Assembly (NCBI GenBank): GCA_030038255.1
Contig: JASHPH010000097.1
Location: 1-47,609 of the forward strand
DNA length: 47,609 nucleotides
Direction: 5' to 3'
Source: Candidatus Sulfotelmatobacter sp.
GTDB lineage: Bacteria > Acidobacteriota > Terriglobia > Terriglobales > Acidobacteriaceae
Shown: positions 11,562 through 25,824 of the stretch, piece after piece
How the letters are laid out: every line of letters starts with the position of its first letter
How positions within the stretch are numbered: the first letter of the stretch is position 1
Translations under genes and position numbers: made by a program
The notes under the pieces: model-generated
Database searches by the model: none
What the model saw: only the letters and a program-made list of their open reading frames with translations
Told to the model about the DNA's origin: nothing

Positions 11562-13094
11562 TTACTGGGGTGGAATGGCCGTTGGAGGCTGAGTTCGCGC
11601 GGTATCCGCCGCGGGGGCTGGCAGTGGGAGCAGGTCCGTCGCTGACCGCTGGGCATACTGCAGAACCCGATTCGGAAGAAGGCCCAAATAGAGCGTGGCG
11701 ACAAGACTGAGCGCCAGCGCCAAACCCAACCCAAAGGGGACCGGGGTGACCGGCACTTCTCGGCGTGCCTCCCGCATGTACATCACGACGATGATGCGGA
11801 GGTAATAGTAAGCGCCGATGGCACTGTTCGCCACGCCAATCAAAGTCAGCCAGATCAGGTTGTTTTTCAGCGCTGCGCTGAACACGTAGAACTTTGCGAA
11901 GAACCCGCCCGTCATGGGGATGCCGATCAGCGAGAGCAGAAAGATGGTGAGAGTGGCAGCCAGCAGCGGAGATGAGCGTCCCAGGCCTTCGTAGTCTTCG
12001 AGCGTCACGTAGCGCTCGCCAGCGTTGGCGAAATGGCTGACGACGGCAAAGGCCCCCACGTTCATGGCGGCATAGGCAGCCGAGTAGAACATCGCTGCCG
12101 AGATCCCATTCGCCGAGTTGTCGGCAGTCATGGCAAATGCGACGAGCAGATAGCCGGCGTGCGCGATCGACGAATAAGCCAGCAAACGCTTCACGTTGGT
12201 CTGGACCAGCGCGCCCAGGTTGCCGATCGTCATGGAGAGCGCTGCGGCGATCCATACAAACCAGAAGCGCCCGGGTGCATTGATCGAGAACACAACGCGC
12301 AACAGCACTGCGAACGCCGCTGCCTTGGGCGCAGTCGACATGAAACCCACGATTGGAGCAGGCGCACCTTCGTAGACGTCAGGGGTCCAGATGTGGAAAG
12401 GTGCGGCGGCGACCTTGAAGCCCAAGCCAACGAACATCAGGGCCGTGGCTACGTAGACCAGCACGGGGACCGGTCCCGACCGCAAGGCGTGGCTGATGTC
12501 GTCAATGTTGGTCGAGCCGGTAGCGCCGAACATCATCGCCACGCCGTACAGAAAAAATGCTGTGGCGAAAGAACCGAGCAGAAAATACTTGAGTGAAGAT
12601 TCGCTGCTCGAAGCCGCGTTGCGGCGGAATCCGGTCAGAATGTAAGTCGAAATAGAAGAGATTTCGAGCGCAATGAAAATCAGCACGAGTTCCACTGCGG
12701 AAGACATCAGTCCCATGCCGACGGCACTAAAAAGGATCAGCGCATAGTACTCGCCGGCGCGAATCTTCTGCACCGCCATGTACTCGAAAGAGGTGAGAAT
12801 TACGATCGCCGCGATCGCGATGACAAGGATATGGAAGAAAACGGTGAAAGCGTCGACCCGCACCATGTCCGCGAAAGCCAGGCCGGGATATTGCGACATA
12901 TACCAGCATGAAATCAGCGCGGCCACTGCGCCCACAAACGCGATCAGCCCCAGTGTCTTCTGGCTTTTTTCCTCGTCCACGAGAGGATCAAGCATCATGA
13001 CAACGATGCCGAAGAGCGAAAGCACAAGTTCGGGCAGGATGCGGACGTAGTCCACACTCGGGGGAATCACCTGGGCCAGAATGTACGGGGTCAT
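11562..13094 (-). CDS. nuoN: NADH-quinone oxidoreductase subunit N
   Basis: Antiporter-like membrane subunit of complex I, one of three proton-pumping modules. 510 residues with about 14 hydrophobic helices. Seen: YILTGFRRNAASSSESSLKYFLLGSFATAFFLYG with the conserved Glu/Lys in this region, KVAAAPFHIWTPDVYEGAP, the LLAYSSIAHAGYLL motif and GIPMTGGFFAKFYVF. It overlaps nuoM by 4 bases (ATGA) and is last in the operon. Confidence 0.96.
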   Translation of the reverse strand: MTPYILAQVIPPSVDYVRILPELVLSLFGIVVMMLDPLVDEEKSQKTLGLIAFVGAVAALISCWYMSQYPGLAFADMVRVDAFTVFFHILVIAIAAIVILTSFEYMAVQKIRAGEYYALILFSAVGMGLMSSAVELVLIFIALEISSISTYILTGFRRNAASSSESSLKYFLLGSFATAFFLYGVAMMFGATGSTNIDDISHALRSGPVPVLVYVATALMFVGLGFKVAAAPFHIWTPDVYEGAPAPIVGFMSTAPKAAAFAVLLRVVFSINAPGRFWFVWIAAALSMTIGNLGALVQTNVKRLLAYSSIAHAGYLLVAFAMTADNSANGISAAMFYSAAYAAMNVGAFAVVSHFANAGERYVTLEDYEGLGRSSPLLAATLTIFLLSLIGIPMTGGFFAKFYVFSAALKNNLIWLTLIGVANSAIGAYYYLRIIVVMYMREARREVPVTPVPFGLGLALALSLVATLYLGLLPNRVLQYAQRSATDLLPLPAPAADTARTQPPTAIPPQ

Positions 13095-14604
13095 TGGCCC
13101 ACCACCTTGCTGGCCACTTGCATGAACGGAGTCAGGGCTGCGGCTACCGCGGGATCAATCGCACCCAGCCACAGGATGGGAGCCACGCCCATCACGAGTG
13201 CCGCCGCGGCGCAGGGCCATATCGCGGCTTTCTCGACGCCGATCATGTCCGCCATGGAATTGTTGATGGAATGCGTCACTTTACCGAAGAAGACGCGCTG
13301 GTACATCCACAACAGGTAGCCGGCGCTCCAGATCACGCCCGTCGCCCCGAGAATTCCATAGATCGCGCGCGCCTGAAATGCTCCGCTCAACACGAGAAAC
13401 TCACCGACGAATCCGTTGAGCAGGGGCAGGCCGACCGAAGCCAGCACGATGAACATAAAGCTGGCCGCATAAACGGGCATGGGAGTGGCAAGCCCACCGA
13501 ATTCGCTGATTTCGTACGTATGGCGCCGTTCGTGAAGAACTCCCGCCAGCATGAAGAGAGCGCCGGTGGAAACTCCATGCGCCAGCATGACGAACATGGC
13601 GCCGTTCAGCCCCAGCTGCGTGAAACTGAAGATGCCGAGCACAACGAAACCAAGGTGACTGACCGAAGAGTAGGCGATCAACTTCTTCATGTTCGGCTGC
13701 ACCATCGAGACGAGTGCGCCATAGACAATGCCGATCAAAGCCAGAACGATGATCCAGGGAGCGTTCGAGCGGGACTGATCAGGGAACAAGGCGAGATTGA
13801 AGCGCAACATGCCATAAGTGCCCATCTTCAGCAGAACTCCGGCCAGCAACACTGAGCCCGCAGTCGGAGCTTCCACGTGCGCATCGGGCAACCACGTGTG
13901 CAAGGGGAACAGAGGAACTTTCACGGCAAAAGCAATGAAGAAGCCGAGGAAGAGCCACTGCGCGGCAGCGGGAAAGTTGGGGACCGATCCGCTCGTGATC
14001 CGATCGCGGATGACGACAAAATCAAAGCTGCCAGTGTGCGCGTAGAGCCACAAAATCGCCGCCAACATGAAGACCGAGGCGATCATGGTGTACATGAAGA
14101 ACTTCACCGCGGCGTACACTTTGCGCTCGTGGCCGAAGACGCCGATCAGCAGCGCCATCGGGATCAGCGTGGCTTCCCAGAAGAAATAGAAGAGGAAAAG
14201 ATCCAGCGAGGTAAACACGCCGATCAGTGCAGTTTCGAGAATGAGCAGAAGGATGAAGAATTCCTTGACGCGGTCATGCACCGATTTCCACGAGATCAGT
14301 ACGCACAGCGGAGTGAGGAACGTGGTCAGTACAACCAGCCACAGGGAGATGCCGTCGATGCCCATGTGGTAGTGGATATTGGGGCTGGAGATCCACTGGT
14401 TGTCGATCTCGTACTGAAATCCGGCTTGTGCGCGATGAAAATGCACGGGCAGGTGCAGCGAGAGCACAAACGTCAGCAGCGATATGACGAGTGAAAAGAT
14501 ACGAATGTCGCGATCACGCCTAGGCAGTAGCACGAGGAGCAGCGCACCGGCGAGCGGAGCGAATGTGACCAGTGTCAGAATGGCAGGGCTGAGGTTGTCG
14601 ATGT

Positions 14605-14608
<4 letters not shown>
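13091..14608 (-). CDS. nuoM: NADH-quinone oxidoreductase subunit M
   Basis: Second antiporter-like proton channel of complex I. The start ATG 14608 overlaps the nuoL stop by 4 bases and has a GGGTGGGA upstream; the frame is open further but that part reads as nuoL shadow. 505 residues. Motifs: HYHMGIDGISLWLVVLTTFLTPL, FFWEATLIPMALLIG (functional Glu), KVPLFPLHTWLPDAHVEAPTAGSVLLAGVLLKMGTYGMLRF and KKLIAYSSVSHLGFVVLG. Confidence 0.96.
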
Positions 14609-16557
<1,949 letters not shown>

Positions 16558-16570
16558 AGTTTAAGCTGAC

Positions 16571-16873
16571 TCATAACTTGAGCAGGTTCACCTGGTCCAC
16601 GTTCAAAGTTTCGCGCGTGCGGTAAACCGCGATGATGATGGCGAGTCCGACGGCGGCTTCCGCCGCGGCCACCACCATCACAAAGAAGACGAAGACCTGG
16701 CCGGCGAGTGCATGCCAGTGCGCGGCGAAGGCAACGAACGACAGATTCACGCCGTTGAGCATCAGCTCAATCGACATGAAGATGGTGATGATGTTGCGTT
16801 TGATGAGGAACCCGGCCACACCGCAGGCGAACAGGATTCCGCTAAGCACAAGATAATAAGAAAGCGGGACCAT
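16571..16873 (-). CDS. nuoK: NADH-quinone oxidoreductase subunit K
   Basis: Small three-helix membrane subunit linking NuoJ and NuoN, part of the proton path. 100 residues, the usual length. Conserved glutamates are seen in [19 protein letters not shown] (helix 2) and [17 protein letters not shown] (helix 3). Its ATG overlaps the nuoJ stop by one base (TGATG). Confidence 0.95.
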
Positions 16874-17424
16874 CAGTTCACCTCCCTTGGTCCGGAAATC
16901 GTTGCTCCGGGAATCGGGGGTGGGGCCGTTGGCGGCTTGCTCGCCAGAACCACCGCACCCATGATCGCGATCAGAATCAAAATCGAAGTGATTTCAAAGG
17001 GGAGCAGAAACTCGTGGAAAAGCAGCGGACCGATCGTCTTGGGGGCGCCAGGCAGTGCGCCGGCTGCGACGGCCTCCGTGCCCGAGTGATGAAGAACAAC
17101 CCAGGCCACGAGAAGACTGCCGAGCAGCATTCCCGGAATGCCGAACAAGACGGCAACGCGGCTGCCCTTGGTGTGCTCCTCGACTCCTGCATTCAGGAGC
17201 ATGATGACAAAAACGAACAACACCATAATGGCGCCGGCGTAAACGATCACCTGCACCGCCGCGACGAATTCCGCCCCCAGCAGCAGATATTCGCCGGCCA
17301 GCGCCGCCATCACCGCGATTAGTGAGAGCGCGCTGTTGATGGGATGCGTCTGCGCGAGCAGGTTGATTGCACCCGCGAGGGCGATCACGCCGAAGGCCAG
17401 AAAGAGTATGAGATGAACGCTCAT
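16873..17424 (-). CDS. nuoJ: NADH-quinone oxidoreductase subunit J
   Basis: Five-helix membrane subunit with the pi-bulge helix that couples quinone chemistry to pumping. 183 residues. The conserved [27 protein letters not shown] is present (about 52-78). The C-terminus is Pro-rich. Its start is separated from the nuoH stop by a 116-base spacer filled with word repeats, exactly where nuoI normally sits. Confidence 0.95.
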
Positions 17425-17428
17425 GAAT

Positions 17429-17534
17429 CAGTACCCGGTACCCAGTACGCAGTACCCAGAAAAATCGAACGACTCAGTCGTTGCTACTGTCGAAGCTTTG
17501 CGACTGGTTACTGGGTACTGACAGCTACGTACTG
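17429..17534. repeat. Word-repeat inverted element A (7-bp words), nuoH/nuoJ spacer
   Basis: Left arm 17430-17459 is four heptamers in tandem: AGTACCC, GGTACCC, AGTACGC, AGTACCC. Right arm 17504-17534 is CTGGTTA, CTGGGTA, CTGACAG, CTACGTA, CTG, an imperfect reverse complement of the left arm in the same 7-bp register. The 44-base centre holds GACTCAGTC and CGACTG words. It fills the spacer almost completely. Confidence 0.85.
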
Positions 17535-17540
17535 CTCTTC

Positions 17541-18620
17541 CTACCACGCTACTGCGATCGCGGTGCCGATCAAATTCACCAGCGAAAGCGGCAGCAGAAA
17601 TTTCCACCCGAACGCCATCAGCTGGTCATAGCGGAAGCGCGGCAACGTGCCGCGCACCCAGATATAAAGAAAGAGAAATACGAAAACCTTGGCGGCAAAC
17701 CAGAACACGGGCAGAATCGCCTGCAGAATCGGAGGCCCGAACAGCGGCCCATGCCATCCGCCGAAAAACAGCACAGTAGCCAGGCACGCAACCGTGATCA
17801 TGTTCGCATATTCAGCCATGAAGAACATGGCGAACTTCATTGCACTGTACTCGGTGTGGTAGCCGGCAACGAGCTCAGTTTCGGCCTCAGGCAAGTCGAA
17901 CGGGATGCGGTTCGTTTCTGCATATGCGGCCATGATGTAACAGAAAAAGCCGATAAGTTGCGGGAAAACATTCCAGCGGGGAATAAATCCTAGGAAATGC
18001 CCGCCCTGTGCGTCCACAATCTCGCGCAAGTTGAAGCTGCCCGCCATGATTAGCACACCGACCAGAGAGAGGCCGAGCGAGATCTCGTAGCTCACCATCT
18101 GGGCGCTGGCGCGCAAGCCGCCCAGCAGAGAGTACTTGTTGTTCGAGGACCAGCCTGCGAGAGCTACGCCGTACACCCCGATCGAGGTCACGCCCAGAAT
18201 CAGGAGTAGCCCCGTGTTCACATCTGTCGCAATCTGTAGCGGAATACTGTAGCCGGCGATCGTGATCGGGTTGCCAAACGGGATGACGGCGATCGAGGTC
18301 AGCGCAAAAATGACCGCGATCAACGGGGCCGCAATGTAGAGCGGTTTGTACACATGCGGCGCAGTCAAATCTTCCTTGAATAGAAACTTCAGGCCGTCTG
18401 CCAGAGGCTGCAGCAGCCCGAACGGGCCCACCCGCGTGGGTCCCCAGCGGTTCTGCATGTGGCCCACGACTTTCCGCTCCAGCCACACCGTGTAGGCGAC
18501 GGCGGTGAGCAGAACGCCGAGCACGATTGCCGACTTAATCACCGACGCCAGAATGTAAATCCAGATGGGCAACCTTACGTCCTCATTCTTTGCGAGCGCT
18601 GAGCTTGGAGCAGTGAGCAT
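17541..18620 (-). CDS. nuoH: NADH-quinone oxidoreductase subunit H
   Basis: Eight-helix membrane subunit that forms the quinone cavity with NuoB/NuoD. 359 residues from ATG 18620. Motifs: TVWLERKVVGHMQNRWGPTRVGPFGLLQPLADGLKFLFKED, GWSSNNKYSLLGGLRASAQMVSYEI, PFDLPEAETELVAGYHTEYSAMKFA and FLFLYIWVRGTLPRFRYDQLM. The first dozen residues (MLTAPSSALAKN) are encoded by word-repeat element B and not by conserved nuoH sequence, so the ancestral start may be lower, for example the TTG in VRLPIW; the repeat may have supplied the present ATG. Confidence 0.95.
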   Translation of the reverse strand: MLTAPSSALAKNEDVRLPIWIYILASVIKSAIVLGVLLTAVAYTVWLERKVVGHMQNRWGPTRVGPFGLLQPLADGLKFLFKEDLTAPHVYKPLYIAAPLIAVIFALTSIAVIPFGNPITIAGYSIPLQIATDVNTGLLLILGVTSIGVYGVALAGWSSNNKYSLLGGLRASAQMVSYEISLGLSLVGVLIMAGSFNLREIVDAQGGHFLGFIPRWNVFPQLIGFFCYIMAAYAETNRIPFDLPEAETELVAGYHTEYSAMKFAMFFMAEYANMITVACLATVLFFGGWHGPLFGPPILQAILPVFWFAAKVFVFLFLYIWVRGTLPRFRYDQLMAFGWKFLLPLSLVNLIGTAIAVAW

Positions 18621-18665
18621 TCTCCAAAGAATCTTGCTCGCCGCTCACTCATAGCTCAAAGCTAA
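18591..18665. repeat. Word-repeat inverted element B (7-bp words), nuoG/nuoH spacer
   Basis: GAGC recurs at 18594, 18601, 18608 and 18615, an exact 7-bp period. Across a 16-base centre the opposite strand word follows: GCTC at 18636, 18643 and 18654, then GCTA at 18661. The left arm overlaps the first codons of nuoH. Confidence 0.85.
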
Positions 18666-18668
18666 GCC

Positions 18669-21023
18669 TCAATCTGCCGCAACTTCCGACTCCTTAATCT
18701 CGTGACTCTCCAGCACCGATTGCAAGGCGCGCGAGTACCGTCCCAGTGTGCCAGAAGTGAACAGGCTGTCTTTGGCTGGAGAAATCGATTCCGCTCTTTG
18801 AGTCGCGCCCGCTCCACTCTCAGCCAGCGTCGTGTGCTCGGAGTTGCCAGCCAGCAGATTGATGCGCGACACGGCATAGCCGGGAACCAGCCGCTGGATC
18901 TCATCCAGAATCGCCGCAGGATCGAGCGGGCTGAGCTTGGGCTCCAGCCCCTGCATTTCAAGCCAGACGGCGTGGCGATCGGCTTCCCCGGATTGCGCTC
19001 CGCGCGACTGGCCCATGTCGGCGCGTGTGCCGCCGCCGAACGGGACGAGCTGGTGAACGTCGAAGCCCATCGCATCTGCGATGCGAACGATCATCTCGAA
19101 ATCGGCCTTCGTACCAGAGACCTCTCCGGCCTTCTTAACCAACTGCACATCGCCGCAGGTGTTGGTCATGGTGCCGGATTTCTCGTAGGCGTTGGCAGCC
19201 GGCAAGACCACGTCAGCCATGGCCGCGGTTTCAGTGAGGAACATGTCCTGCACGACCACGAAGCTCTTCGAAAACACGAAGGGATCAATGTTCAGCCGCC
19301 CGATGGGATTCGATCCGACAACGTAAAGAGCCTTGAGCGTTCCTGTCTTCGCCGCTTCCACCATGCCCTGCAGGTCGAGGCCACTGGTTGTTGGAACGGC
19401 CCACTCCTGATGGAATACCGTGCTGCTTGAGACGGGATGATAGCCGGGAAGCAGGTCGGGATAGAGGCCCATGTCCGCGGCACCGCGCGAGTTGGCGTAG
19501 TCAGCAAGGCAGATTAATTTCGCGCCTGGAATCGCGGAACCGAAAGAAACGAGACTGGCAACATCGTTGCCGCGAATTTCCGAACCGAAAATAATGATGA
19601 GGTTCTGCTCGCCGCGGAGTGTGTCGCGCAGAGCAAACCAAGCTTCTTTGCCGGTTGCGGCGCTGGCGAGGCCGTCGGCAGCGGCGTCGTTCCCGGCGAG
19701 AAACGCTGCAACCTTGCCTTCTGCTCCGGCCGGAATTTGCGTGAAGCCCGCTGCCTGGCGGCGCAATTTAATCGGCTGTGAGTTGATTACGTACAGCTTC
19801 GCACGATACAGGCGCACGTTATTGCGAATCTGCCAGGCCAGCAACGGATGCTGCTCCGTCGGGTCATTGCCGATCAGAAGAATGGCGGGTGCGTTGAACA
19901 CGTCAGCCATCGTGGCCGTGGCGTCCGGTTTGCCGCGAAGCGCCGCGGCGAAGGCAGGGAAGTCGGCCGTGCGGTGATGGTCGATGTTGTTCGTCTTCAG
20001 AACGACCCGGGCGAACTTCGAGAGCAGGTAAGCTTCTTCGTTGGTGGTGCGCGTCGAGCCGATCACTCCGATCGCCTGCCCGCCGTGCTGATCGCGCACT
20101 TCGGCAAATTTCTTGCCGACCAGTTCGAATGCTTCTTCCCATGTCGCCGGAGTCAGCCTGCCGTTCTTCCGTATGAGCGGCTGCGTCAGCCGGTCTTCGT
20201 GATTGGCAAAATCGAAGGCGTAGCGGCCCTTGATGCAGAGGAAGTCGCCGTTGGTGCCGCTCTTGTCGCGGTTGTCTCCGCGGACGATTTCCATGCCGGT
20301 GTCCGCGCGGCGCACGCCCAGCGTGGTCTTGCACCCGTCGCCGCAGTGCGTGCAGACCGTGCCCACGTGCTTCATCTCCCATGGCCGCGTCTTGTAGCGG
20401 TACGCACCGGAGGTGAGAGCGCCGACCGGGCAGATGTCGATGCACATGCCGCACTCTTCGCACTCGAGATGATCGCCCTGATTCGGGGCGATGATGGAGC
20501 TTACGCCCCGGTTCTGCACGCCCAGCGCCCATACGTCCATGCCCTCGCCGCAGACCCGTACGCAGCGGTAGCAGAGAATGCAGCGTGGCCGGTCGAAGAA
20601 GACCACGGGAGACCACTGCTGTTCCTCGCGATGGTTCTTCGCCTCCATGAATTTCGATTCGGCGGCGCCGTAGGAAAACGTCATGTCCTGCAGTTCGCAC
20701 TCGCCGCCGGCATCGCAGACCGGACAATCGAGCGGGTGGTTGCCGAGCAAAAGTTCCAACATCGACTTGCGGGCCTGCTTGATCTCGGCGCTGTCGGTGG
20801 TGACGATCATGCCTTCGCTGATGACAGTCGTGCACGCGGTCTGCAGCTTGGGCATCTTCTCGATCTTGACCAGACACATGCGGCAGGCGCCCTGCAGCGA
20901 CAGATTGGGGTAATAGCAGAAGGAAGGCACCTCGATGCCCACGCTCTTGCAGGCCTCGATGAGGAGCGTGCCCGCGGGTGCGGTGAGCTTCTTGCCGTCG
21001 ACAGTGAGGTTCACGTCAGGCAT
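18669..21023 (-). CDS. nuoG: NADH-quinone oxidoreductase subunit G
   Basis: Iron-sulfur subunit of the peripheral arm, in the molybdopterin-oxidoreductase superfamily. 784 residues. Seen cluster ligands: [2Fe-2S] N1b (Cys36, 47, 50, 64), the His/Cys motif HPLDCPVCDAGGEC of N5, CILCYRCVRVC with CEECGMCIDICP (N4 region), and CTHCGDGC...CIKGR, the extra N7-type cluster. The C-terminal two thirds are the degenerate Mo-bisMGD fold (IGSTRTTNEEAYLLSKF, GSNPIGR, ETAAMADVVLPAANAYEKSGTMTN). A long, low-complexity tail (about 700-760) precedes the end. Six bases separate it from nuoF. Confidence 0.96.
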   Translation of the reverse strand: MPDVNLTVDGKKLTAPAGTLLIEACKSVGIEVPSFCYYPNLSLQGACRMCLVKIEKMPKLQTACTTVISEGMIVTTDSAEIKQARKSMLELLLGNHPLDCPVCDAGGECELQDMTFSYGAAESKFMEAKNHREEQQWSPVVFFDRPRCILCYRCVRVCGEGMDVWALGVQNRGVSSIIAPNQGDHLECEECGMCIDICPVGALTSGAYRYKTRPWEMKHVGTVCTHCGDGCKTTLGVRRADTGMEIVRGDNRDKSGTNGDFLCIKGRYAFDFANHEDRLTQPLIRKNGRLTPATWEEAFELVGKKFAEVRDQHGGQAIGVIGSTRTTNEEAYLLSKFARVVLKTNNIDHHRTADFPAFAAALRGKPDATATMADVFNAPAILLIGNDPTEQHPLLAWQIRNNVRLYRAKLYVINSQPIKLRRQAAGFTQIPAGAEGKVAAFLAGNDAAADGLASAATGKEAWFALRDTLRGEQNLIIIFGSEIRGNDVASLVSFGSAIPGAKLICLADYANSRGAADMGLYPDLLPGYHPVSSSTVFHQEWAVPTTSGLDLQGMVEAAKTGTLKALYVVGSNPIGRLNIDPFVFSKSFVVVQDMFLTETAAMADVVLPAANAYEKSGTMTNTCGDVQLVKKAGEVSGTKADFEMIVRIADAMGFDVHQLVPFGGGTRADMGQSRGAQSGEADRHAVWLEMQGLEPKLSPLDPAAILDEIQRLVPGYAVSRINLLAGNSEHTTLAESGAGATQRAESISPAKDSLFTSGTLGRYSRALQSVLESHEIKESEVAAD

Positions 21024-21029
21024 TGCAGA

Positions 21030-22352
21030 TCAATGGGCCAGCACGGGAAGCTGCTCGACCGCTGCCTCTTTCTCGTACGGGCACGGTCGGCCTTCCAGGT
21101 GGTCCTCAAATTCCTTGCGAAACTTTTTCACGAAGCCGATGGTCGGCATGGCGGCGGCATCACCCAGCGGACAAAACGTCCGCCCCAGCATGTTTTCCGC
21201 CAGGTACTGCATGTTGTCGATGTCTTTTTTCAATCCCCCGCCGGCGTGGAAGCGAATCAGCGTCTTCTTCAGCCAGTCCGTTCCTTCGCGGCAGGGGATG
21301 CACCACCCGCAACTTTCATGCTGATAAAACTTCATCGTCCGGAGCGCAAATTTCACGATGCATTGCGCGTCATCGATCACGACCACGCCGCCTGACCCGA
21401 GCATGGATCCCGCCTTCGCCACCGAATCGAAATCCATGGCGACATCGATCTCGTCGGCGGTGAGACAGGGGCAGGACGATCCCCCGGGGACGACAGCCTT
21501 CAAATTGCGTCCATTGGGGATGCCGCCGCCGACCTCGTAAATCATTTTCTTTAAGTTATAGCCCATCGGCAGCTCGTAGACGCCCGGCCTGGCGATGTTA
21601 CCGCTCAGGCAGAACAGGCGCGTGCCGCCGTTCTTCGGCGTGCCCAGTTTCGCGTACCAGTCCGCGCCGCCGAGGATGATGTGTGGCACGTTGGCCAGCG
21701 TCTCGGCGTTATTAATGATCGTAGGACCTCCCCAGAGCCCAACCACCGCAGGGAAGGGCGGGCGAATGCGCGGGACGCCGCGCTTGCCCTCGAGCGACTC
21801 CATCAGCGCCGATTCTTCCCCAACCTCGTAAGCACCAGCGCCGCCGTGCCAGTAGACGTCGAAATCGCGTCCGCTGCCGAAGATGTTTTTGCCGAGAAAG
21901 CCCTTGGCATAAGCATCGCGAATCGCCTTCTGCATGATGATCGACAGATATCGATACTCGCCGCGGATGTAGATGTAGCCGCTCTTTGCTCCAATCGACA
22001 GTCCGGCGATTACGACTCCTTCAATCACCGAATGTGGATCGTGCTCAAAAATCAGGCGGTCTTTGCAGGTTCCGGGTTCGCTCTCGTCGCCATTGCACAA
22101 GACATATTTCGGCTTGGCGGACTGCTTGGGCACGAACGACCACTTCATTCCGGCGGAGAATCCCGCGCCGCCGCGTCCTCGAAGAGCTGAGTTCTTCATC
22201 TCATTAATAATGGCATCCGGTTCCATGGCGAGTGCTTTCTGCACGGCCTTGTAGCCGTCGAGCGCGAGGTAGCGGTCAATGTTGGTCGCGCCCTGGCCAA
22301 AGCGCCGGGAGACGACCTTTACCTCGTCGGGATGGGACACGAGATCAGCCAT
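21030..22352 (-). CDS. nuoF: NADH-quinone oxidoreductase subunit F
   Basis: Binds NADH and FMN and starts electron transfer. 440 residues from ATG 22352. NADH/FMN motifs: LRGRGGAGFSAGMKW, CNGDESEPGTCKDR, GAGAYEVGEESALMESLEGKRG. N3 [4Fe-4S] ligands: CGWCIPCREG (Cys348, 351, 354) and FCPLGD (about 394). GAGAYEVGEES has Val where Cys is usual, and CKDR has Cys where Phe is usual; neither is a cluster ligand. The 88-base spacer to nuoE is word-repeat element C. Confidence 0.96.
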   Translation of the reverse strand: MADLVSHPDEVKVVSRRFGQGATNIDRYLALDGYKAVQKALAMEPDAIINEMKNSALRGRGGAGFSAGMKWSFVPKQSAKPKYVLCNGDESEPGTCKDRLIFEHDPHSVIEGVVIAGLSIGAKSGYIYIRGEYRYLSIIMQKAIRDAYAKGFLGKNIFGSGRDFDVYWHGGAGAYEVGEESALMESLEGKRGVPRIRPPFPAVVGLWGGPTIINNAETLANVPHIILGGADWYAKLGTPKNGGTRLFCLSGNIARPGVYELPMGYNLKKMIYEVGGGIPNGRNLKAVVPGGSSCPCLTADEIDVAMDFDSVAKAGSMLGSGGVVVIDDAQCIVKFALRTMKFYQHESCGWCIPCREGTDWLKKTLIRFHAGGGLKKDIDNMQYLAENMLGRTFCPLGDAAAMPTIGFVKKFRKEFEDHLEGRPCPYEKEAAVEQLPVLAH

Positions 22353-22355
22353 GGG

Positions 22356-22437
22356 ATTGAGTCATTGAGTCATTCAGTCATTGAACCAACGGGCGCCGCT
22401 AAATGACTCAATGGCTAAATCACTCAATGCCTAAATT
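22356..22437. repeat. Word-repeat inverted element C (8-bp words), nuoE/nuoF spacer
   Basis: Left arm 22356-22384: ATTGAGTC, ATTGAGTC, ATTCAGTC, ATTGA. Right arm from 22402: AATGACTC, AATGGCTA, AATCACTC, AATGCCTA, AATT. Period 8 on both sides, arms reverse-complementary, centre of about 17 bases. Confidence 0.85.
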
Positions 22438-22440
22438 CCT

Positions 22441-22923
22441 CTACTGCGTTCCCTTCTTTCTGTACTCGTTGAGAATCCTGTCCATTTTTTCGGGCGTCAG
22501 ATTTTCGTGAAAATCGTAATTGACTTGCGCAGCTGGGGCCCAGCTGCAAGCGCCAATGCACTCCACTTCTTCGAGCGAAAACAGTCCATCCGGAGTCGTG
22601 CCTTTGTGGCCGATCCCCAATTTCTTTGCGCAGTGATGCAGAATCTCTTCGCCGCCGCGCACCATGCAACTGATATTAGTGCACACCTGCACGTTGAATT
22701 TGCCGCGCGGTTTGGTGGTCAGCATGGAGTAGTAGCTGATCACATTGCGCACTTCGAGTTCGGTCAGATCGAGGCGGGAGGCGATTTCTGTAATGACTTC
22801 GTCCGAGAGAAATCCGACTTCATCCTGTGCATAAAGCAGCGTCGGCACGAGCGCGGATCGCTTAGTCGGATAGTGCGTGACCATCTCGCTGAAACGCGAT
22901 TCGAATTCGTCAGAAAACTTCAC
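22441..22923 (-). CDS. nuoE: NADH-quinone oxidoreductase subunit E
   Basis: Thioredoxin-like subunit with the [2Fe-2S] cluster N1a next to NuoF. 160 residues from a GTG start that overlaps the nuoD stop (GTGA). Ligand motif CTNISC...ECIGAC gives the four cysteines with the expected CxxxxC and CxxxC spacing. The N-terminal helical bundle (PTKRSALVPTLLYAQDEVGFLSDEVITEIASRL) is typical. Confidence 0.96.
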   Translation of the reverse strand: MKFSDEFESRFSEMVTHYPTKRSALVPTLLYAQDEVGFLSDEVITEIASRLDLTELEVRNVISYYSMLTTKPRGKFNVQVCTNISCMVRGGEEILHHCAKKLGIGHKGTTPDGLFSLEEVECIGACSWAPAAQVNYDFHENLTPEKMDRILNEYRKKGTQ

Positions 22924-24125
22924 CGGTCAATTTCTCCCAAGACAATGTCAATGCTGCCGATGGCCGCGACCACATCGGCAATCAGATGGCCTTCACACAT
23001 CTTCGCCAGCGTCTGCAAATTTGCGAAGCATGCCGAGCGCATGTGCACGCGGTACGGTTTTGCAGTGCCGTCGCTGACGATGTAGTAGCCCATCTCGCCG
23101 CGCGGCGACTCGACCCCCTGATACACCTCGCCGGCCGGGACCGCGAATCCTTCCGTGATGATTTTGAAGTGATAGATGAGCGATTCCATCTGCGTCTTCA
23201 TCTTTTCGCGGTCGGGAAGAACCACATGCGGCGCGTCGGCCTTGATCGGGCCTTCCGGCATGCCGTCGAGCGCCTGGCGAACGATGCCACAGGACTCGCG
23301 CAGTTCCTGCACGCGGCACATGTACCGGGCGAAGACGTCACCGTCCTGCGAAACCGGCACTTTGAACTGGAATTTCTCATAGCTCGAGTACGGCATGTCG
23401 CGGCGCAGATCGATATCTACTCCGCTGCCGCGCAAGGTTGGTCCGGTAGCACCGAGGGCGATCGCGTCTTCGGCCGACATTACCGCCACGCCCTTGGTTC
23501 GCATCCCCCAGATCGGGTTTCCGGTCAGCAGATTCTCATACTCATCGACTTTTTCCGGGAAATAGCCCGCAAAATCGCGGACGCGATCGAAGAATCCGAG
23601 CGGCGGCTCCAGCGCAATTCCGCCCACGCGGAAATACGAGGTCATCATGCGCTGCCCGCTGACCATCTCGAACATCTTCAAAACTTCCTCGCGCTCACGG
23701 AAGCAATATAAGAAGACCGTCAGCGCCCCGATGTCCATGGCGTGTGTGCCCAGCCACACTAGATGCGAGTTGATGCGCGTCAGTTCATTCAGCAAAACCC
23801 GCAGCCACTGCGCCTTTGGGGGGATCTCCAGTCCCAGCAGCTTCTCCACAGCCAAGACGTAGCACAGGTTGTTGGTCATGGGGCAGAGATAGTCAATACG
23901 GTCGGTGAGCGGCACCACCTGCTGGTAGAACTTGGCCTCGCAGGTCTTTTCGATTCCGGTGTGCAGGTACCCGATGTCGGGCATCAGGCGGACGACCGTC
24001 TCGCCGTCGATTTCGAGCAGCACGCGCAAAACGCCGTGCGTCGACGGGTGCTGCGGCCCCATGTTCAGGATCATGGTGCGATCCTGGCCAGGCTCGAGGA
24101 CGGGAGTGGGCGTCAGAGATGCCAT
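22920..24125 (-). CDS. nuoD: NADH-quinone oxidoreductase subunit D
   Basis: 49-kDa subunit, lining the quinone site with NuoB. I start at ATG 24125 (401 residues, MASLTPTPVLEPGQDRTMILNMGPQHPSTHG) since upstream sequence is nuoC in another frame. Motifs: NMGPQHPSTHGVLR with the quinone-site His, GYLHTGIEKTCE, RINSHLVWLGTHAMDIGA, GPTLRGSGVDIDLR and the C-terminal IGSIDIVLGEIDR. Gap of 4 bases to nuoC. Confidence 0.96.
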   Translation of the reverse strand: MASLTPTPVLEPGQDRTMILNMGPQHPSTHGVLRVLLEIDGETVVRLMPDIGYLHTGIEKTCEAKFYQQVVPLTDRIDYLCPMTNNLCYVLAVEKLLGLEIPPKAQWLRVLLNELTRINSHLVWLGTHAMDIGALTVFLYCFREREEVLKMFEMVSGQRMMTSYFRVGGIALEPPLGFFDRVRDFAGYFPEKVDEYENLLTGNPIWGMRTKGVAVMSAEDAIALGATGPTLRGSGVDIDLRRDMPYSSYEKFQFKVPVSQDGDVFARYMCRVQELRESCGIVRQALDGMPEGPIKADAPHVVLPDREKMKTQMESLIYHFKIITEGFAVPAGEVYQGVESPRGEMGYYIVSDGTAKPYRVHMRSACFANLQTLAKMCEGHLIADVVAAIGSIDIVLGEIDR

Positions 24126-24129
24126 CTGC

Positions 24130-24627
24130 CTAGCGGTAGCCCTCCACGGGATAGTCTTTGCGCAGAGGATGGCCTTCCCAGTCCTCAGGCATGAGAATGC
24201 GGCGCAGATGAGGATGACCGGTAAAGCGCACGCCGAACAGATCAAACACTTCGCGCTCGAAAAAGTTCGCGCCCGGCCACACCGAAGTGATCGATTCGAC
24301 CGCCGGACTGCTGCTGTTCAGACGAACCTTCAGCCGCACGCGTTCTTTGTTCGGGATGGACAGCAGGTGGTAGATGACTTCAAAACGCGGCTCCGCCGGA
24401 TACCAGTCCACGCATGTAACGTCGGAGAGGAAATTGAACGGGCAGGCGGGATTGTCCTTCAAAAGCGCGCAGGCCTCGCGGATATTGGCCCGATCGAGAT
24501 AAATCGTCATCTCGTCGCGGTCGAACTTGACGCTCTGTATGGCCGCCGGATTCCAGCCAAGCAGGCAGGCGACCGCGGGATGGTTCTTCAACTGCTCCAG
24601 ATCGGTGATCGCGGGCGCCAGGGGCAT
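24130..24627 (-). CDS. nuoC: NADH-quinone oxidoreductase subunit C
   Basis: 30-kDa peripheral-arm subunit without cofactor. 166 residues from ATG 24627, which overlaps the nuoA stop by one base (TAATG). Signature near the end: FEREVFDLFGVRFTGHPHLRRILMPEDWEGHPLRKDYPV. The direct junction with nuoA leaves no room for nuoB. Confidence 0.95.
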   Translation of the reverse strand: MPLAPAITDLEQLKNHPAVACLLGWNPAAIQSVKFDRDEMTIYLDRANIREACALLKDNPACPFNFLSDVTCVDWYPAEPRFEVIYHLLSIPNKERVRLKVRLNSSSPAVESITSVWPGANFFEREVFDLFGVRFTGHPHLRRILMPEDWEGHPLRKDYPVEGYR

Positions 24628-25019
24628 TAGACTTTCCCCCGCCGCCCCGTCTCGCCCCAATCGAGAACACCCTTCTTCCATACATAGAAGAAGCCGACGA
24701 GGAATATCCCGATGTACACCAGCATTTCCCACAAGCCGAAGCGCCTGAGATCGCGCAGGATCACAGCCCAGGGATAGATAAAAATCGCCTCTACGTCGAA
24801 CAGAATGAAGAGCATGGCGACCAGGTAAAATTTCACCGAGAAGCGTTCGCGGGAGTCGCCAACCGGGGTCATGCCGCATTCGTAGGGCGAGAGTTTGGCG
24901 CGGGTGGGCTTGCGCACTCCGATCAGCCAGGAAAGGATGACAATTGCGGCCGCAATCCCGCCCGCCATAAGCATATGGATCAGGAACGGGAGGTAGCGTG
25001 CGAAGTAATTGTCGGGCAT
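24627..25019 (-). CDS. nuoA: NADH-quinone oxidoreductase subunit A
   Basis: Three-helix membrane subunit near the quinone cavity. 130 residues from ATG 25019; the longer frame to 25205 reads through promoter and repeat. Conserved: KLSPYECGMTPVGDSRERFSVKFYLVAMLFILFDVEAIFIYPWAV, with the loop Cys and the membrane Asp/Glu pair. First gene of the operon. Confidence 0.96.
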   Translation of the reverse strand: MPDNYFARYLPFLIHMLMAGGIAAAIVILSWLIGVRKPTRAKLSPYECGMTPVGDSRERFSVKFYLVAMLFILFDVEAIFIYPWAVILRDLRRFGLWEMLVYIGIFLVGFFYVWKKGVLDWGETGRRGKV

Positions 25020-25065
25020 AGGAGAAGGTATATATAATTCGCGCCAGCGATCGCTTAAACGTTCT

Positions 25066-25094
25066 AGATTATGGGCTTGGCGCAACAGTGTCAA
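25066..25094 (-). promoter_or_regulatory. Promoter of the nuo operon
   Basis: On the minus strand a perfect TTGACA (25089-25094), a 17-bp spacer and TAATCT (25066-25071), about 45 nt before the nuoA start. A second AT-rich TATATA lies nearer the ATG (about 25030-25036) and is an alternative -10. Confidence 0.55.
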
Positions 25095-25132
25095 GCGAGC
25101 GGGCGGTCGTTTTTGGGACTGCGAAGGGGATG

Positions 25133-25240
25133 ATTTTGTAATTTTGCAATCGGGTAATTTTGCGAATTGAAATGCTGGATGGTCGGGCCGATTTTGGCCG
25201 TTCAATTACCAGATTACAAAATTACGCAATTACAAAATCC
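25133..25240. repeat. Word-repeat inverted element D (8-bp words), upstream of nuoA
   Basis: Left arm 25133-25164: ATTTTGTA, ATTTTGCA, ATCGGGTA, ATTTTGCG. Right arm 25201-25240: TTCAATTA, CCAGATTA, CAAAATTA, CGCAATTA, CAAAATCC. Both are in 8-bp register and mutually reverse-complementary. The element ends two bases before the ATG of the next + strand gene. Confidence 0.85.
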
Positions 25241-25242
25241 CT

Positions 25243-25824
25243 ATGATTTTCGGCTTCAATACCGACGTCAAGCACGGCGACACCATTTACCACGTGCAGA
25301 GCGAAGCGCGTGAAAACGAGCGGTTGCTGCAGACGCAGGTCTTTGTACGCGGGCGCTGTGTCGGGAAAAAGGCGACATCGTACGCCAGCAAGTCCGACGC
25401 GTCGTTCGGCGACGCCCAAAAGGAGCAGCAACTGCGCGAGCAGCACCGGCTCGTGCTCGACGCCATTCGCGAAGGGAAGCTGGATCAGGCCCTCGATCGG
25501 CCCGAACCCGAAGTCCTTGCGACGGTGAAGGAGCTCGACGTGCAATGGCTCAACTCCGGCTCGGTTCTTGCCGACCGCAACCTGATCATGCAGCTGCGGG
25601 TGACCGAGGGAGGGTCGGCCGCCCCCGGTGCACGCCTGACGTTCCGCTTTGCCCGTCCCGGAGCTTCGCCTTTCTATACTCAGGCTGTCGCCGATTCCGG
25701 CGGCTCGGCGGAAATCAAGATTGAGGTTGACGAGTCCACGCTGCCCGATTCGTCTCTCCTAGTCCAGGCCAACTTTGAAGGCCGCACCGCCACCAGGAAA
25801 TTCCTGCTGCGCAAGGCGGAGTAG
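25243..25824 (+). CDS. Conserved hypothetical protein (nuo-divergent)
   Basis: 193 residues from ATG 25243, two bases after word-repeat element D, so it has no normal Shine-Dalgarno region. Two parts are seen: an N-terminal region (1-90; FGFNTDVKHGDTIYHVQSEARENERLLQTQVFVRGRCVGKK) followed by a charged helix, and a C-terminal beta domain (about 105-190) resembling an Ig/CARDB-like sandwich. No signal peptide or membrane span. I have the impression of a conserved acidobacterial unknown, but cannot name a function. Confidence 0.7.
   Translation: MIFGFNTDVKHGDTIYHVQSEARENERLLQTQVFVRGRCVGKKATSYASKSDASFGDAQKEQQLREQHRLVLDAIREGKLDQALDRPEPEVLATVKELDVQWLNSGSVLADRNLIMQLRVTEGGSAAPGARLTFRFARPGASPFYTQAVADSGGSAEIKIEVDESTLPDSSLLVQANFEGRTATRKFLLRKAE

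What the first reader, a model, noticed from the sequence alone, without database searches (positions are those of the whole stretch)
17429..25240. Four word-repeat inverted elements, one in every long spacer of the nuo operon
Seen directly: elements A (17429-17534), B (18591-18665), C (22356-22437) and D (25133-25240) share one plan. Each arm is a tandem of three to five words of 7 bp (A, B) or 8 bp (C, D), and the opposite arm is the reverse complement in the same register. The words are unrelated (AGTACCC, xxxGAGC, GAGTCATT, ATTTTGTA). All nuo spacers of more than about 15 nt contain one and the short ones none. Convergent hairpins with different sequences suggest a mechanism that makes or keeps structure, not sequence: slippage-born repeats, RNA processing or stability segments that set subunit ratios, or transcriptional pause sites. 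Heptamer STRR repeats of cyanobacteria are the nearest named analogue I know.
Basis: partly seen in the sequence, partly recalled or inferred. Interest (0 to 1): 0.78.

Follow-up and report, generated by a model that had tools for sequence, protein, structure and literature searches.

The report
Hairpin relics of a word-ended mobile element
Four odd hairpins between respiratory genes are most likely gene-less copies of a barely studied insertion element whose two ends are arrays of 7-8 letter words, and the choice of word goes with the small ring-forming protein that full copies of the element encode.

Summary
In the window plus 80 related nuo loci, long spacers show a sharp 7/8-nt period and no other. 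The words were the puzzle. In relatives, 20 nuo spacers hold the same kind of word arms with a gene or its remains between them: PF05635/TIGR02436, the four-helix-bundle '23S rRNA intervening-sequence protein' (IVP, S23). Of 66 IVP genes located in Acidobacteriota, 52 lie between inverted arrays of 7/8-nt words, against 0 of 132 displaced control windows. Words go with the IVP lineage (Mantel z 5.9, 0 of 2000 permutations, pairs with homologous flanks dropped). Each window element matches an IVP-bearing element in words; C matches one in its own genome. Of 12 plasmid IVPs read, 10 cyanobacterial, 9 have such ends. So A-D are most likely ORF-less relics or miniatures of 'IVP elements'. Stem mismatches show no G-U preference (194 G.T, 186 A.C), which speaks against a selected RNA hairpin. 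Inferred: each word binds one subunit of the IVP ring. Movement is not shown.

The parts
17425..17540 (-). Element A, nuoH-nuoJ spacer: 7-nt words AGTACCC, arms 17429-17459 and 17503-17534
   Evidence: words match the arms of IVP element L210 (0 of 300 shuffles as good)
18591..18665 (-). Element B, nuoG-nuoH spacer: weak 7-nt xxxGAGC hairpin
   Evidence: z -1.6; words match IVP arms L207, L200 and L180 (the last of the own genome) (1 of 300 shuffles as good)
22353..22440 (-). Element C, fills the nuoE-nuoF spacer: 8-nt words ATTGAGTC
   Evidence: words match IVP element G000:C137 (L192) of the own genome (0 of 300)
25122..25242 (+). Element D, divergent region, ends at the ATG of the + gene: 8-nt words ATTTTGTA with one ATCGGG word
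   Evidence: words match IVP elements in nuo operons of relatives L056, L028, L034, L006 (0 of 300)
17541..18572 (-). nuoH (upstream of A)
16873..17424 (-). nuoJ (downstream of A)
18669..21023 (-). nuoG (upstream of B)
21030..22352 (-). nuoF (downstream of C)
22441..22923 (-). nuoE (upstream of C)
24627..25019 (-). nuoA
25243..25824 (+). gene whose start codon follows D; no Pfam match

Best explanation
A-D are ORF-less copies (relics or miniatures) of 'IVP elements'. A full element is [tandem 7-8 nt words] - ivp gene - [the same words inverted]; ivp encodes a four-helix-bundle protein of the S23/23S-IVP family, whose two matching solved structures hold five chains. Each IVP lineage tends to have its own word, so hairpins of different families look unrelated but share one plan. 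Elements sit in gaps next to stop codons, often filling the gap from stop to start, and occur as full, broken-gene, internally deleted and bare forms. Shown: arms and gene occur together as one unit; the word goes with the protein lineage; window words match IVP elements; presence and word type change between sister species. Inferred: bare hairpins derive from full elements; the words are binding sites of the IVP ring, one word per subunit (which would fix the 7-8 nt step and the 4-5 words per arm); the element is or was mobile; a host enzyme does the cutting; intercistronic positions survive because a folded or RNase-III-cut hairpin there does little harm.
For: IVP ORF or remnant between word arms in 20 nuo spacers of relatives (268 spacers of at least 40 nt tested), 12 in D-E and 8 in F-G, some intact, some frameshifted or partly deleted; family assignment over cut-off. 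At 66 located IVP genes: inverted match of at least 16/20 plus lag 7 or 8 with at least 50% match in 52, against 0 of 132 controls (the lag criterion alone 54 of 66 and 1 of 132). Word period changes 6 times on the IVP tree against 15.4 on average (min 12) in 200 shuffles. Mantel z 5.9, 0 of 2000. Window words match IVP arms; 81 of 123 ORF-less nuo hairpins share at least 30% of the 6-mers of an IVP arm from another locus, 5 of 123 shuffled; in stretches of three genomes 30 of 35, 3 of 7 and 7 of 8 hairpins match some IVP arm. Words per arm: 4 or 5 in 72 of 104 arms; 2gsc and 2rld hold 5 chains, and a paper passage calls the Xanthomonas S23p a homopentameric toroid. Same kind of arms at 9 of 12 plasmid IVPs read.
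Against: No consistent target-site duplication, transposition intermediate or burst of near-identical copies was shown; no catalytic domain is known in IVP (recalled). Arms and gene travelling as a unit would give the word-protein association without binding. Resident IVPs match resident hairpins better than random IVP sets in G297 (0 of 1000) and G084 (20 of 1000; one of its 35 hairpins lies beside a resident IVP gene) but not clearly in the window's genome (128 of 1000). A measure on all 5-mers gives only r 0.10 (10 of 2000). 14 of 66 IVP genes failed the combined arm test. The rows include orthologous nuo copies, so its count of changes is not over independent elements. In G297 the strict scan gives 7 hits at periods 7 and 8 against 4 at the seven other periods, so the signal is weak in that genome. 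B is weak. Words at one slot resemble each other more than words at other slots of the genome, so in-situ drift is also present. 28 of 48 nuo spacers of at least 240 nt hold no IVP remnant.
Confidence: 0.75

Rival explanations
1. Selected RNA hairpins: intercistronic stems that set mRNA stability or, as a split ribosome-binding site, bring a Shine-Dalgarno sequence upstream of the stem close to the start codon behind it (as in T4 genes 25 and 38).
For: 154 of 213 nuo spacers of 45-200 nt are spanned by one hairpin; median anti-SD energy is -6.0 upstream of the stem and -0.95 before the start, in E-F -5.8 and +0.4, with -6.35 in 10 short-gap orthologues; no strict element in 62 divergent gaps of at least 40 nt in G084 (1 of 45 in G297, 1 of 33 in the own genome); T4 precedent in PMC3014915 (passages read).
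Against: G.T 194 and A.C 186 mismatches: no G-U preference; IVP arms 23 and 28. The SD signal is weak in F-G and G-H, and in D-E it lies in the NuoD C-terminus, where coding constraint may explain it. It does not explain word period, gene or word-protein match.
Confidence: 0.12
2. Slippage-born repeats: short words duplicate in place and are mirrored by template switching within a hairpin, with no mobile element.
For: Words at one slot are more alike than across slots (.157 against .082 at .80-.85 nuoF identity; same genome, other slot .100; shuffled .056); word-variable positions are mirrored at 71%; no G-U bias.
Against: Only periods 7, 8 and harmonics stand out in nuo loci; similar word families recur in unrelated positions and genomes; IVP genes sit between the arms and their lineage goes with the word; sister species differ in whole vocabulary.
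Confidence: 0.08
3. REP/REPIN elements mobilised by RAYT (Y1) transposases.
For: Same preference for unidirectional and convergent spacers as REPs (PMC3733652, passages; compare); Y1 genes exist in all 4 genomes searched.
Against: Only 3 of 24 Y1 loci hold a 7/8 element, by its coordinates not next to the transposase gene; no single conserved palindrome.
Confidence: 0.03

Closest known systems
Intervening sequences (IVS) of 23S rRNA with S23p ORF (Coxiella, Leptospira)
   Same: S23/IVP ORF between complementary ends that form a stem; ORF undergoing reductive decay; called selfish (PMC4990558, passages)
   Different: Here the elements lie between protein genes, not in rRNA; ends are tandem 7-8 nt words that go with the IVP lineage; many copies lack the ORF; RNase III excision not tested
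Heptamer repeats: cyanobacterial STRR, TAACTGA of Beggiatoaceae, GGGAATC of Xanthomonas
   Same: 7-nt tandem words in intergenic gaps near starts and stops, TAACTGA also near ribosomal protein genes; GGGAATC often as inverted pairs (PMC4679880 abstract and passages; PMC4692102 passages; STRR recalled)
   Different: In what I saw they are described as direct repeats or G-quadruplexes without an encoded partner; TAACTGA is one word with a single inverted case
MITEs and REPINs
   Same: Short inverted, non-coding, multi-copy inserts in transcribed gaps
   Different: No fixed terminal sequence, no known transposase, no clear target duplication seen
DGR accessory protein Avd (bAvd)
   Same: IVP L210 also matches Pfam bAvd exactly at its cut-off, 40 bits
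   Different: No reverse transcriptase or template repeat was looked for here
TRAP-RNA (recalled)
   Same: Ring protein reading evenly spaced short words, one per subunit: the model for the proposed mechanism
   Different: Analogy only; unrelated fold, about 5-nt spacing

Membership tests
23S rRNA IVS element | inserted in 16S/23S rRNA | tested here: not met
   A-C lie in nuo spacers and D upstream of nuoA; elements also lie between ribosomal protein genes
23S rRNA IVS element | complementary ends forming a long stem | tested here: met
   for A, C, D (B weak); for IVP elements
23S rRNA IVS element | encodes an S23/IVP protein | tested here: inconclusive
   A-D themselves have none; word-matched full elements in the own genome and relatives do
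23S rRNA IVS element | excised by RNase III | not testable with these tools
   needs RNA
MITE | terminal inverted repeats shared with a full-length partner | tested here: inconclusive
   words are shared with IVP elements, but not the arm sequence letter for letter
MITE | target-site duplication | tested here: inconclusive
   sister spacers without element inspected by eye, no consistent duplication; D has an 8-bp repeat ATGATTTT at 25130 and 25243
REP/REPIN | linked RAYT gene | tested here: not met
STRR heptamer repeats | tandem 7-nt words in intergenic DNA | tested here: met
   A; C and D are 8-nt; the family itself was defined in cyanobacteria (recalled)

The most novel reading that the evidence does not exclude
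Intergenic 7-8 nt repeats across bacteria (STRR, TAACTGA, GGGAATC, and these hairpins) are ends or relics of one class of mobile element whose S23/IVP ring protein reads one word per subunit around the ring; word and protein co-evolve as a lock-and-key code, and the ring gathers both ends for movement by a borrowed enzyme.
Probability: 0.4. Interest if true: 0.93.

Novelty: new variant of a known kind. Interest (0 to 1): 0.82.

Why it matters
S23/IVP proteins have solved structures but no known function (so a passage of PMC4990558), and I know of no accepted explanation for the heptamer repeats of cyanobacteria and other bacteria (recalled; PMC4692102 and PMC4679880 offer G-quadruplexes and translational regulation). 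Finding IVP gene lineages between arrays of their own words turns both into one testable question: does the ring bind its word, and does binding move the element? It also gives a natural library of protein-word pairs from which a recognition code could be read.

Tried and rejected
Split ribosome-binding site as the selected function: striking in E-F, but not general and contradicted by the absence of a G-U bias; kept as a reason why insertions are tolerated. RAYT/Y1 mobilisation. Known RNA family: Rfam finds nothing in the window at gathering threshold. Genome-wide 'dialect': weak; resident-IVP match clear in two of three genomes. All-frame stop codons as reason for a 7/8 period: considered from the words, not tested. 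Detector limits: the strict scan misses B and mixed 7/8 arms, so copy numbers are lower bounds. The gene finder was home-made; class counts depend on it. The AGC-word count by clade (13 of 13 against 7 of 38) was set up after seeing the words on the tree, so it is illustration, not a test.

Rows dropped: one search used 230 of 659 spacers (40-220 nt, window's three included); one search used 213 of 546 gene gaps; one search kept 155 of 246 candidates (alignment score at least 24); one search located 66 of 69 loci, two of which (L190, L193) are one broken gene (51 of 65 without L193); one search used 66 rows (52 loci with arms, L190 and L193 both kept, plus 14 nuo ORFs; L194 and L019 are the same element), so arms were required; one search used 51 elements and dropped 34 pairs with homologous flanks; one search read 12 of 36 plasmid records.

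Full report
What is there. The window lies in an Acidobacteriota genome (G000, 5.1 Mb in 423 contigs; phylum inferred). The three closest public nuoF matches are named Candidatus Sulfotelmatobacter. The nuo genes run on the minus strand. Spacers E-F, G-H and H-J hold C, B and A; D lies in the divergent region upstream of nuoA and ends 3-4 nt before the ATG of the + gene at 25243. A, C and D are clear hairpins with 7- or 8-nt words; B is weak.

Beyond chance. In 80 orthologous loci plus the window, spacers of 40-220 nt (230 of 659) show excess self-match at lag 7 (.373 against .261, z 36.7) and lag 8 (z 18.6) with harmonics at 14, 16, 21 and 24, and no excess at 5, 6, 9 or 10. A strict search for periodic arms with an inverted partner finds 49 and 44 hits at periods 7 and 8, 43 at 14 and 2 at 15, and none at 4-6 or 9-13, in 1.28 Mb of nuo loci. 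In the same-genus genome G084 a looser setting finds 27 and 8 hits at periods 7 and 8 in 400 kb, 5 at the seven other periods; in G297, also 400 kb, 5 and 2 against 4, a weak signal. By the home-made gene finder 26 of the 35 G084 elements are in tandem gaps, 6 convergent, 3 inside predicted genes. In gaps of at least 40 nt, strict elements occur in 27 of 178 tandem, 6 of 47 convergent and 0 of 62 divergent gaps of G084; in G297 4 of 169 tandem, 0 of 33 convergent, 1 of 45 divergent; in the own stretches 6 of 93, 1 of 35 and 1 of 33 (the last is D). In the ribosomal protein operon of G084, 14 genes are followed by an element within 150 nt (L2, L16, L14, S8, S13 and RpoA confirmed).

Turnover. 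At one slot, E-F, sister species carry different words, or none (L001, next to the window: 6 nt; L045 against L044: 15 and 91 nt), while most of the distant relatives have gaps of -1 to 2 nt. Words at one slot are still more alike than between slots.

The key. Of 48 spacers of relatives with at least 240 nt, 20 have between two word arms an ORF, intact or broken, of PF05635 (23S_rRNA_IVP) and TIGR02436 (four helix bundle protein); three such proteins were scanned against Pfam and two against NCBIfam, all over the cut-offs. A search of all 268 spacers of at least 40 nt finds it in these 20 (281-622 nt) only, always on the operon strand: 12 in D-E, 8 in F-G; 6 match in more than one frame, one keeps only residues 39-134. 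Other species hold bare hairpins in the same slots. The other 28 long spacers hold other ORFs or none.

General rule. PF05635 occurs in 87 of 120 genomes of the window's family, 99 of 199 of the phylum (93 over the cut-off) and 0 of 14 control genomes. At 66 IVP genes located (of 69 loci), the best 20-nt inverted match between the flanks is at least 17 in 49, against 2 of 132 displaced controls. Requiring a match of at least 16 together with lag 7 or 8 at 50% leaves 52 of 66 and 0 of 132. The words differ from element to element.

Word goes with protein. On a tree of 66 IVP proteins the word period changes 6 times, against 15.4 in shuffles (min 12 of 200); small clades share word cores: AGC, GTCGTT, AGGTNTT, AGTTNCC, GAGTACC/AGTACCC, xxATT (many forks unresolved, nuo orthologues included). 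With pairs having homologous flanks removed, protein identity and shared word cores correlate (lag-conserved 3-mers r .218, z 5.9, 0 of 2000; repeated 3-mers z 5.4; repeated 4-mers z 3.9; 5-mers of any kind r .102, 10 of 2000). The correlation is modest in size. It supports gene and arms being one heritable unit; that the word is the binding site is inference.

Back to the window. The 6-mers of A are best matched by the IVP element L210, B by L207, L200 and the own genome's L180, C by L192 of the own genome (G000:C137), D by IVP elements in nuo operons of relatives; shuffled arms reached these values in 0, 1, 0 and 0 of 300 trials. Of 123 ORF-less nuo hairpins 81 share at least 30% of the 6-mers of an IVP arm from another locus, shuffled 5. 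In sampled stretches, 30 of 35 hairpins of G084, 3 of 7 of G297 and 7 of 8 of the own genome match some IVP arm; resident IVPs beat random IVP sets in G297 (0 of 1000) and G084 (20 of 1000), not clearly in the own genome (128 of 1000).

Not an RNA hairpin under selection. Arms of 155 hairpins were aligned with equal cost for all mismatches: G.T 194, A.C 186 (p .72). Selection on the transcript should favour G.T; acceptor and T stems of 22 tRNAs from the fetched loci give 13 and 0. IVP arms give 23 and 28. Mismatches recur at lag 7 and 8 (z 4.8, 3.3), as expected if word-variable positions tolerate them. The arrangement stop codon - hairpin - start codon with SD left of the stem resembles the split initiation region of T4 genes 25 and 38 (PMC3014915, passages) and may explain why such inserts are tolerated.

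Beyond the phylum. tblastn with the L182 protein finds IVP in 44 plasmid records, more than half of them cyanobacterial by the names shown, none in phages. In 12 records read (chosen from the earlier), 9 have inverted arms with best lag 7 or 8 and a 20-nt match above the maximum of 30 shuffles: Pseudanabaena and Anabaena between cas6 and cas4, Picosynechococcus between cas10 and cmr3, Calothrix brevissima, Nostoc edaphicum, Stanieria (narrowly), Geminocystis, Azospirillum, Gemmatirosa; two (Aulosira, Nostoc C052) show a word array on one side only, one (Calothrix 7716) none. This ties in with cyanobacterial heptamer repeats, TAACTGA repeats (PMC4679880, abstract and passages) and GGGAATC repeats of Xanthomonas, often in inverted pairs (PMC4692102, passages); the nearest solved IVP, 2gsc, is named XCC0516, and a Xanthomonas campestris S23p structure is described in the passage. 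Whether XCC0516 lies between GGGAATC arrays could not be checked here.

Mechanism. 2gsc and 2rld each hold 5 chains and the S23 protein of Xanthomonas is a pentameric toroid (PMC4990558, passage). Arms carry 4 or 5 words in 72 of 104 cases. I propose that each ring subunit holds one word, as TRAP does with its triplets (recalled), which fixes the 7-8 nt step and makes word and protein change together. Movement, enzyme and nucleic acid (DNA or RNA) are open.

Literature. Ten searches of open-access PMC papers; nothing in the rows shown linked IVP/S23 to tandem words, but some lists were cut (20 of 908, 20 of 43, 12 of 22). Subscription papers are mostly absent, so this is not proof of novelty.

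Noticed in passing
window 11562-25019: I saw no nuoB and nuoI in the nuo operon (none found between A and C or between H and J); they may be elsewhere or replaced.
   Followed up: no
window 25130-25137 and 25243-25250: Perfect 8-bp repeat ATGATTTT brackets element D and includes the start codon of the + gene: a possible target duplication or a second start.
   Followed up: partly
L249, L253, L255: IVP elements inserted inside CRISPR operons of cyanobacterial plasmids (cas6-cas4, cas10-cmr3).
   Followed up: partly
G084:C23 about 56-73 kb (L117-L118): Ribosomal protein operon with word hairpins in about half of its gaps, of several word families.
   Followed up: partly
E-F and D-E spacers of relatives: Shine-Dalgarno signal kept left of the hairpin although the start codon is often 80-110 nt away.
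   Followed up: partly
155 hairpins: The arm read 5' to 3' towards the loop is T/G-rich (T 1661, G 1259, A 1191, C 790), and G.G mismatches outnumber C.C 66 to 28; unexplained.
   Followed up: no
L210 protein: IVP of the AGTACCC family also reaches the Pfam bAvd cut-off (40 bits), a bridge to diversity-generating retroelements.
   Followed up: no
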